From Candidatus Desulfatibia profunda (GTDB lineage: Bacteria; Desulfobacterota; Desulfobacteria; Desulfobacterales; UBA11574), in contig JACNJH010000116.1 of assembly GCA_014382665.1 (NCBI GenBank), positions 1-51,612 of the forward strand: a stretch of DNA of 51,612 bases, given 5' to 3'. This document shows positions 23,950 to 25,873 of this stretch, in pieces. The notes beneath the pieces were generated by a model. It saw only the letters and a program-made list of their open reading frames with translations, did not search any database and was not told the DNA's origin. Position numbers and translations under genes: made by a program. Every line of letters begins with the position of its first letter. Position 1 is the stretch's first letter.

Positions 23950-24801
23950 TTAAAAAACAATCCCCACATATCCCACAAAACTGTCACCGGGGCTTTTATC
24001 ATAACTGGTGGCGTAAGCAATGCTTTCGGCCTGCCGGGCCCCAAGCTGTTTGGCTGCGGCAATTGCCGTAGCAGCGGCACCGCCACAGCAGGCGTTCTGG
24101 TTTTCGAGTGCTTCTCTGATAACACTGTCGGGGTCCATGGCCAGCATGGCATCGATAACCCGGCGGTCGTTTTCATTGCGCACCCACTCAACCGCCGCCG
24201 GCCCTGTACCTTTAACGACAAAACCATAATTGTAACCGTAATGGGTAAGGTCTGTCGATCCAATCACTTTTACCCGCTGGCCGAGCCGAGTTGCAATATC
24301 CGCCACAGCCTTTCCGATTTCCAGAGATGTTTTTGTCGGCGGCACACCGATGGGAACAAGTTTCGCGTCTTCAAAAAAATATTTAATAAAAGGGAGCTGG
24401 AGTTCGATGGTATTGTCCCGGGTAAATTTTTCAGCAGTCTCGATCTTAAAAGGAAATTGTTTGGCCAGCTCGCCAGCCAGTGTTTTTTCGATTTCAATCG
24501 GGCCGAAAGGGGTTTCCCAGGCGCCTGCGGTCATCAGATAGGATGGTGAACCGGGATGGAGATGCATCCCGAAAACCGCAATAACATCCGGAGCTTTCTC
24601 TTCTTTTAAGCAATGGAATACGTTGCAGGCAATACTGCCTGAAAAGTACCAACCGGCATGGGGAACGATTCCGCCGGTAAAGGTTTTGCCCGAACCGGAC
24701 GGAACCTTGGCCTGTTTAAGAAAACCCTTAATCTCTTGCTTGCATCCGGCAGCGCTGTCCGGATACCAGCTTCCTGCAAAAGTTGCTTCTCTTATTTTCA
24801 T
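23950..24801 (-). CDS. amrB: MEMO1/AmmeMemoRadiSam system protein B family
   Basis: I chose ATG 24801 (MKIREATFAGSWYP) because GGAGG sits just upstream. 283 residues with the family marks GSWYPDSAAGC, GGIVPHAGWYFSGSIACNVF, GMHLHPGSPSY, WETPFGPIEI, NTIELQLPFI, GSTDLTHYGYNYG and the C-terminal CGGAAATAIAAAK. Family members resemble extradiol-type ring-cleavage dioxygenases (LigB fold), and in many anaerobes they are encoded with an AMMECR1 protein and a radical SAM enzyme; neither partner is here. The protein's activity is not established. A 262-bp inverted-repeat element begins 18 bases upstream of its start. Confidence 0.88.
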   Translation of the reverse strand: MKIREATFAGSWYPDSAAGCKQEIKGFLKQAKVPSGSGKTFTGGIVPHAGWYFSGSIACNVFHCLKEEKAPDVIAVFGMHLHPGSPSYLMTAGAWETPFGPIEIEKTLAGELAKQFPFKIETAEKFTRDNTIELQLPFIKYFFEDAKLVPIGVPPTKTSLEIGKAVADIATRLGQRVKVIGSTDLTHYGYNYGFVVKGTGPAAVEWVRNENDRRVIDAMLAMDPDSVIREALENQNACCGGAAATAIAAAKQLGARQAESIAYATSYDKSPGDSFVGYVGIVF

Positions 24802-24818
24802 GGCTGCCACCTCCTTTA

Positions 24819-25080
24819 CCCTAACATTGCATAAACAACATGGCAAAAAGTGATTAACAATTCGATATTCTAACGAAAATCATGTAAACAGGTCCCGTTT
24901 GAATTTCCAGCCGCTGGTGAATTAAAGCTCCCCGCCCTTTAGGGCGGGGCTTTCCGGTAAGGATTTTAATCTTTTTTATATAGCTCCCCTTGACCCCGTC
25001 CTAAAGGAAGGGGGCAAGGGGAGCGCTCCGGTCAAAGGATGGGGGGTCAATTTTGCCATGTTGTTTATGCAACGTCAGGG
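24819..25080. mobile_element. MITE-like element with 30-bp terminal inverted repeats
   Basis: 24819-24848 and the reverse complement of 25051-25080 agree at 28 of 30 positions (core TTGCATAAACAACATGGCAA). The 262-bp interior has no gene but two strong hairpins: CCCCGCCC-TTTA-GGGCGGGG (about 24928-24948), and arms CTCCCCTTG / CAAGGGGAG around 24985-25023. No clear target duplication is visible. Such a structure suggests a non-autonomous transposable element, although a palindrome-rich regulatory spacer is possible. Confidence 0.55.
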
Positions 25081-25210
25081 ATTAATTTTTTTTGCAATGT
25101 TCACAATACAACAACAAGCCGAATACATCAAGCGTATGGATGTAATTATCGCTTGACATAAATGAATACCAACCATAATTTTAGCACATTCAATTACTTG
25201 GGAGTCTGTT

Positions 25211-25798: not shown

Positions 25799-25873
25799 AG
25801 GCACGTAGCTCAGGGGGAGAGCGCTACCCTGACACGGTAGAAGTCCGCGGTTCAAATCCGCGCGTGCCTACCA
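25799..25873 (+). tRNA. tRNA-Val (anticodon GAC)
   Basis: 75 bases fold as a cloverleaf: acceptor AGGCACG/CGTGCCT, D stem GCTC/GAGC, anticodon stem CTACC/GGTAG with loop CTGACAC (GAC at positions 34-36), T stem CGCGG/CCGCG with loop TTCAAAT, discriminator A and an encoded CCA end. Confidence 0.96.

What the first reader, a model, noticed from the sequence alone, without database searches (positions are those of the whole stretch)
24819..25080. 262-bp MITE-like element at the 5' end of the MEMO-family gene
30-bp terminal repeats match at 28 positions, with two GC-rich hairpins inside and no gene. The left end lies 18 bp from the ATG, so the element may carry or replace the promoter.
Basis: seen in the sequence. 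Interest (0 to 1): 0.5.

Follow-up and report, generated by a model that had tools for sequence, protein, structure and literature searches.

The report
Mobile DNA scrap with nested insert
Just in front of a bacterial gene sits a short, gene-less jumping element that borrows the end sequences of a known transposon family, and a second small hairpin element has later jumped into it; this is a new example of a well-known kind rather than a new kind of thing.

Summary
In detail: 24819-25080 has 30-bp ends matching at 28 positions (best of 60 shuffles 21). The 262 bp are two elements. Outer: a 153-bp MITE of a family scattered through Desulfobacterales genomes. Of 31 distinct paired copies, 20 have an exact 4-bp target duplication and none one of 2, 3 or 5-9 bp. 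The family's outer 17 bp equal the right end of IS1380-family transposons in other families of the order; each window end matches at 16 of 17. Inner: 109 bp at 24923-25031, the two 'GC-rich hairpins', a separate dispersed REP/PATE-like family, inserted without duplication after TTTGA; sister MITEs have the unbroken target. None of 11 relatives with the same divergent MEMO/thioesterase pair has the MITE there, so it is an insertion of this lineage, not conserved regulation. It lies directly upstream of the MEMO gene's Shine-Dalgarno sequence. No promoter-like site facing MEMO was found inside it; more likely it lengthens the leader with a 30-bp stem. No IS1380 transposase with these ends was found intact in the own genome, and no transposase at all for the inner element. 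New member of a known kind.

The parts
24819..25080 (.). composite: outer MITE with nested hairpin element
24819..24848 (+). left terminal inverted repeat of the MITE; outer 17 bp match the IS1380 right-end type at 16 of 17
25051..25080 (-). right terminal inverted repeat of the MITE; outer 17 bp match the IS1380 right-end type at 16 of 17
24815..24818 (.). left flank TTTA, target-duplication position (3 of 4 match the right flank)
25081..25084 (.). right flank ATTA, target-duplication position
24923..25031 (-). nested 109-bp REP/PATE-like hairpin element (boundary uncertain by 2 nt)
   Evidence: unbroken target in sister MITEs; dispersed copies
24930..24949 (-). terminal hairpin of the nested element; terminator-like towards MEMO
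24983..25024 (-). second hairpin of the nested element
25032..25036 (-). TTTGA on the minus strand, preceding the nested element (target side)
24810..24814 (-). GGAGG Shine-Dalgarno of the MEMO gene, directly beside the element's flank
   Evidence: read; similar motif in relatives
23950..24801 (-). MEMO-family gene
   Evidence: PF01875
25211..25636 (+). divergent 4HBT thioesterase gene on the other side
   Evidence: PF13279; pair kept in 11 relatives

Best explanation
A 153-bp MITE derived from an IS1380-family transposon inserted between the upstream region and the Shine-Dalgarno sequence of the MEMO gene. It was moved in trans by an IS1380-type DDE transposase acting on its CCCTAACGTTGCATAAA-type ends, making a 4-bp AT-rich duplication that has since changed at one base. 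Later a 109-bp hairpin element of a separate REP/PATE-like family inserted into the MITE 3' of TTTGA without a target duplication, as an HUH (Y1) single-strand transposase would do. Shown: the copies, the ends, the duplication in the family, the unbroken target of the inner insertion, the absence of the MITE at this place in relatives. Inferred: which transposase moved each, and that a transcript started upstream now carries a 262-nt leader domain closed by a 30-bp stem four bases before GGAGG, with the inner hairpin as a possible weak terminator.
For: 28 of 30 TIR match against a shuffle best of 21. Own genome: 35 end-motif hits with up to 2 mismatches against 5 for the reversed control; paired copies C95 (258 bp), C153 (259), C132 (290), C101 (90), each with an exact 4-bp duplication. 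Of 31 distinct paired copies held, 20 have exact 4-bp flank identity, none at 2, 3 or 5-9 bp; swapped flanks give 65 of 930. The exact 20-mer of the family end is in 61 stretches of genome contigs, 58 titled Desulfobacter- or Deltaproteobacteria (33 of the 61 come from two MAGs, JAOZPY and JAOZSC). IS1380 transposons: L312 1467 bp, NF033539 228 bits (cut-off 180), right end CCCTAACGTTGCATAAA; L101 1446 bp with the same right end; end motif in 15 of 24 IS1380 loci, 1 of 30 Y1 loci, 0 of 29 MEMO loci. Without the insert the window copy is 153 bp, as L164 (153) and L152 (154), 121 identical columns of 155 and 156. Insert: the target GGTGAATTCAAAGGAT is unbroken in 11 of 13 sister MITEs looked at, 3 exactly and 8 with 1-3 changes; 29 copies with recognisable ends, TTGA before 19 of them. 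MEMO/4HBT intergenic region of 11 relatives has no MITE end. RNA fold -128.5 kcal/mol, z -7.83.
Against: The window's own flanks match at 3 of 4 bases only, and 11 of the 31 copies lack an exact duplication. Each window end matches the IS1380 right end at 16 of 17, and identity to the IS ends stops there; the inner 13 bp of the TIR are MITE-specific. No intact IS1380 transposase with these ends was seen in the own genome (one partial PF13701 copy, L108, not similar to the L312 transposase). In the own family PF13701 matches in 8 of 24 genomes, over the cut-off only in G000 and G019, and the scanned loci lack the end pair; one search added one 57-aa fragment in G008. Assemblies are drafts. L101 and L312, the two IS copies with both ends clear, do not show an exact 4-bp duplication; L101's frame is broken and its 363-aa part scores 142 bits, under the NF033539 cut-off. 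No transposase was found for the inner element. No expression data.
Confidence: 0.87

Rival explanations
1. The whole 262 bp is one MITE with its own internal hairpins.
For: One continuous palindromic block with ends at both sides.
Against: The inner part occurs alone at many other places in the own genome and relatives, and 11 of 13 sister MITEs have the uninterrupted target.
Confidence: 0.03
2. The element is a conserved regulatory region (promoter, riboswitch-like leader) of the MEMO gene.
For: It lies right before the Shine-Dalgarno sequence and folds strongly.
Against: Absent from the intergenic region of 11 relatives with the same gene pair; other copies lie elsewhere; Rfam gives only matches far below gathering scores; no promoter-like site towards MEMO inside.
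Confidence: 0.03
3. The MITE has been co-opted: it now sets MEMO expression, by a leader stem, by partial termination at the inner hairpin, or by a promoter the scan cannot see.
For: Position between upstream region and Shine-Dalgarno; terminator-like hairpin towards MEMO; 30-bp stem ends four bases before GGAGG. MITEs with promoters or regulator sites are described in the review PMC10969869 (passages).
Against: No expression data; promoter and terminator scans are near the shuffle level (2 against 0.8; 1 against 0.4).
Confidence: 0.25
4. The outer element belongs to another transposon family whose ends happen to resemble IS1380 ends.
For: Similarity stops at 17 bp; no autonomous copy with the full 30-bp MITE end was seen.
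Against: 15 of 24 IS1380 loci carry the end motif against 1 of 59 control loci.
Confidence: 0.08

Closest known systems
Type I MITEs (short non-autonomous derivatives of insertion sequences), here of the IS1380 family
   Same: short, no gene, TIRs shared with an IS, 4-bp duplication, multicopy
   Different: the matching IS1380 transposons were found in other families of the order, not in the own genome; the full 30-bp end is MITE-specific
PATEs of the IS200/IS605 family (described in PMC7290912, passages)
   Same: two hairpins, no TIR, no duplication, fixed short sequence on the 5' flank
   Different: no TnpA or TnpB with these ends found; no TnpB (PF07282) hit in the 16 family genomes searched
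REP sequences moved by RAYTs (PMC2817692, abstract and passages)
   Same: dispersed GC-rich palindromes, 45 terminal-motif hits in G008
   Different: no GTAG/GTGG head seen; not flanking any of the 36 Y1 loci examined
TIMEs, 262-bp Tn3-derived MITEs of Pseudomonas (PMC4133298, passages)
   Same: same length (coincidence, since here it is 153 + 109), fold into RNA hairpins
   Different: Tn3-type ends, 5- or 6-bp duplication

Membership tests
IS1380-derived MITE | short, non-coding, with terminal inverted repeats | tested here: met
   153 bp without insert, 30-bp TIRs, no ORF of 80 aa inside
IS1380-derived MITE | several copies in the genome | tested here: met
   four other paired copies plus single ends in the own genome
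IS1380-derived MITE | target duplication of fixed length | tested here: met
   family: 20 of 31 exact 4 bp, 65 of 930 in swapped flanks
IS1380-derived MITE | target duplication at this very copy | tested here: inconclusive
   TTTA/ATTA, 3 of 4
IS1380-derived MITE | ends shared with an autonomous IS1380 element | tested here: met
   family end equals the right ends of L101 and L312 over 17 bp, window ends 16 of 17 each; transposase NF033539 over cut-off for L312
IS1380-derived MITE | matching transposase in the same genome | tested here: not met
   only a partial, dissimilar PF13701 copy in G000; draft genome in 293 contigs, and not required of a MITE that can be stranded
IS1380-derived MITE | mobilised by IS1380 transposase | not testable with these tools
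   needs a transposition assay
IS200/IS605 PATE (inner element) | no terminal inverted repeat and no target duplication | tested here: met
   unbroken targets in sister MITEs and, with one mismatch at the junction, for the copy in an IS1380 gene of G008
IS200/IS605 PATE (inner element) | inserted 3' of a fixed tetra/pentanucleotide | tested here: met
   TTGA before 19 of 29 copies, A at -1 in 29, T at -3 in 28
IS200/IS605 PATE (inner element) | TnpA/TnpB element with the same ends | tested here: not met
   none among the 36 Y1 loci scanned (one search listed many more that were not fetched); three TnpB hits in 25 genomes, none in the own family, their loci without the end pair; not filed as a member
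RAYT-associated REP (inner element) | copies flank a RAYT gene | tested here: not met
   best match E 0.009 (L245) in 36 Y1 loci, five of them from the own genome, whose matches number five

The most novel reading that the evidence does not exclude
A two-step composite (an IS1380-type MITE, then a REP-like element inside it) has become the 5' leader of the MEMO mRNA. It closes a 262-nt RNA domain with a 30-bp stem four bases before the Shine-Dalgarno sequence, so that expression is tuned by read-through of the inner hairpin. The MITE family is an orphan kept without its transposase in this family of Desulfobacterales.
Probability: 0.15. Interest if true: 0.45.

Novelty: new member of a known kind. 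Interest (0 to 1): 0.25.

Why it matters
It gives an IS1380-linked MITE family in Desulfobacterales with its boundaries, its 4-bp target duplication and two size forms, and shows that apparent internal hairpins of a MITE can be a second mobile element. Annotators of these draft genomes can use the ends to mask repeats. The effect on the MEMO gene is a testable but ordinary case of insertion into a 5' leader.

Tried and rejected
Single 262-bp element: rejected by the unbroken targets. Conserved regulatory region: rejected by relatives. Known RNA family: four hits, all far below gathering scores, best E 0.0076. Viral copies: 0 matches of a 19-mer in viral contigs. Inner element as the end of a TnpA/TnpB or RAYT element: no support; three of 30 Y1 loci have the 8-base left motif TTGACCGG but none has the right motif, and L245 has two weak matches to the hairpin, best E 0.009. 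Full-length autonomous copy with 30-bp MITE ends: in the pair scan (pairs 50-4500 bp apart in the loci then held) the only pairs over 302 bp were L039 (1251 bp, poor match, not pursued) and the IS1380 copy L101, which is also L122. Papers: searches listed no title or abstract describing an IS1380-derived MITE in Desulfobacterales. Of the 6 papers I read passages of three. The single papers and most of the 75 (12 listed) were not opened. Subscription journals and ISfinder are not covered.

Full report
OBSERVATION. The terminal repeats are real: 24819-24848 and 25051-25080 match at 28 of 30 positions, against a best of 21 in 60 dinucleotide shuffles. The two GC-rich hairpins are real. The gene beside it is MEMO-family (PF01875), minus strand, ATG 24801-24799; GGAGG lies at 24810-24814, then TTTA, then the element (read).

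TWO ELEMENTS, NOT ONE. A search of the own genome split the query. Its ends match one set of places (C87, C101); its middle, query 107-217, matches a different set (C196, C221, C228, C71, C80 and others). Relatives show the same split: left arms 1-108 alone, or the middle alone. Sister MITEs carry GGTGAATTCAAAGGAT where the window has 109 bp extra. Of 13 sister MITEs looked at, 3 have this target exactly (L152, L181, L034), 8 with 1-3 changes, and 2 (L041, L129) have diverged too far to tell. Without 24923-25031 the window copy is 153 bp; sisters with the long repeat at both ends are 150, 154, 153, 150, 151 and 152 bp (L129, L152, L164, L181, L188, L154). L152 and L164 share 121 of 156 and of 155 alignment columns with it, the other four 100-111 of 156-159.

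OUTER ELEMENT. Two size forms exist: about 258 bp, with one long-repeat end and one different end, and about 150 bp with the long-repeat end at both sides. The 150-bp form looks like the 258-bp form without its right-hand segment (inference). Of 31 distinct paired copies among the loci held, 20 have an exact 4-bp flank duplication and none a duplication of 2, 3 or 5-9 bp; swapped flanks give 65 of 930; the window has 3 of 4. That scan required close end matches; the own-genome copy C153, with an exact TTTA duplication, falls outside it. The exact 20-mer of the family end is in 61 stretches of genome contigs. Fifty-eight carry Desulfobacter- or Deltaproteobacteria titles (one as 'Delta 1' symbiont of Olavius), and 33 of the 61 come from two MAGs. 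The other three are a 'Proteobacteria' MAG (L129), a 'Bacteroidetes' MAG (L152, a full 154-bp element) and a Prevotella MAG (L138, no paired end, probably chance). A 19-mer gave no match in viral contigs.

MOVER OF THE OUTER ELEMENT. I guessed IS1380 from memory of its ends and short AT-rich duplications, then tested it. A PF13701 search of 60 relatives gave L101, whose transposase lies inside 1446 bp with ends CCCTCCAGTTGCATAAA and CCCTAACGTTGCATAAA. Homologues in 21 of 291 order genomes include L312, a 1467-bp element whose protein scores 228 bits to NF033539 (IS1380 family, cut-off 180). The end motif with at most 1 mismatch is in 15 of 24 IS1380 loci (rows from 21 genomes; three genomes give two overlapping loci), 1 of 30 Y1 loci and 0 of 29 MEMO loci. 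Against: the window's two ends match the IS right end at 16 of 17 each and the likeness stops there; L101's frame is broken and scores under the cut-off; L101 and L312 lack an exact 4-bp duplication. In the own family, PF13701 matches in 8 of 24 genomes, two over the cut-off (G000, G019), without the end pair; the L101 protein finds only a 57-aa fragment in G008, and G000's partial copy is not similar to L312. So the mover is inferred from relatives, and the family may now be stranded here, or its transposase lost in assembly gaps.

INNER ELEMENT. It recurs in forms of about 70 and about 110 bp, with a few shorter or longer. Its terminal motif, with up to 1 mismatch, has 18 hits in G000 and 45 in G008, in 9 of 25 genomes in all; reversed control 0. 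Of 29 distinct copies with recognisable ends, TTGA precedes 19, A is at -1 in all, T at -3 in 28; GCTT is followed by CA in 28, the window being the exception with TA. A second empty site is in an IS1380 gene: G008 (L205) has the insert where G059 and G223 read through, with one mismatch at the junction, so the exact cut is uncertain by 2 nt. Missing duplication, fixed 5' flank and hairpins are the IS200/IS605 pattern (PMC7290912, passages), but no Y1 or TnpB gene with these ends turned up, and one search lists many Y1 genes whose flanks were not fetched. So: works like a PATE or REP, not filed as a member.

SITE AND EFFECT. MEMO-like hits are in 56 of 60 relatives, the weaker ones to other members of the family. 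Of the 30 loci fetched, including the window, 12 show the divergent 4HBT gene, that is 11 relatives. None of the 11 has a MITE end in the intergenic region. AAAGGAGGTG stands before the MEMO start in 7 of the 11, GAGGAGGTG in L228, AAGGGAGGCG in two, and L237 differs. Their intergenic lengths run from 178 to 720 bp (L237's is approximate), against 409 in the window, or 147 without the element, both flank copies kept. The promoter scan found one site towards MEMO, at 25172-25145, beyond the element, and one facing the other way inside it; numbers are near shuffle level (2 against 0.8). A terminator-like hairpin of the inner element faces MEMO (1 against 0.4). Folded as RNA, the leader has the 30-bp stem closing four bases before GGAGG (MFE -128.5 kcal/mol, z -7.83); in that fold the first bases of GGAGG pair with the 5' end of the stretch given, which is arbitrary. 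So the likeliest effect is a longer, structured leader; this is inference.

COMPARISON. MITEs that carry promoters or regulator sites are reviewed in PMC10969869 (passages only; the term IS1380 does not occur in it). The listings showed no IS1380-derived MITE described for Desulfobacterales; most of those papers were not opened. This is a new family of a known kind, with a nested insertion of another known kind. Interest is low to moderate.

Noticed in passing
25086-25101: A further 16-nt partial match to the MITE end (88% inverted to 24823-24838) lies just outside the right end; it may be a remnant of another end or chance.
   Followed up: no
L216, L220 and other MEMO/4HBT intergenic regions of relatives: The intergenic region varies from 178 to 720 bp between 11 relatives; L216 and L220 share a repeat-like stretch (by eye), so other repeats seem to have inserted here.
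   Followed up: partly
L218, L219, L221-L224, L231 upstream of MEMO: A conserved block TTGGAC, 16 bases, GGCAAATT stands shortly before the MEMO Shine-Dalgarno in family members; it is not recognisable in the window beyond the MITE.
   Followed up: partly
L205 (G008:C200): A copy of the inner element sits inside a remnant of an IS1380 transposase gene.
   Followed up: yes
L152 (DRPN01000019.1): A contig titled Bacteroidetes carries a full 154-bp copy of this Desulfobacterales MITE; misbinning or transfer.
   Followed up: no
L308, L309: IS200-like Y1 loci have their own hairpins CCACGGGCGTAAGCCCGTGGG, unlike the inner element.
   Followed up: no
25799-25873: A tRNA-Val (gac) gene follows the 4HBT gene.
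   Followed up: yes
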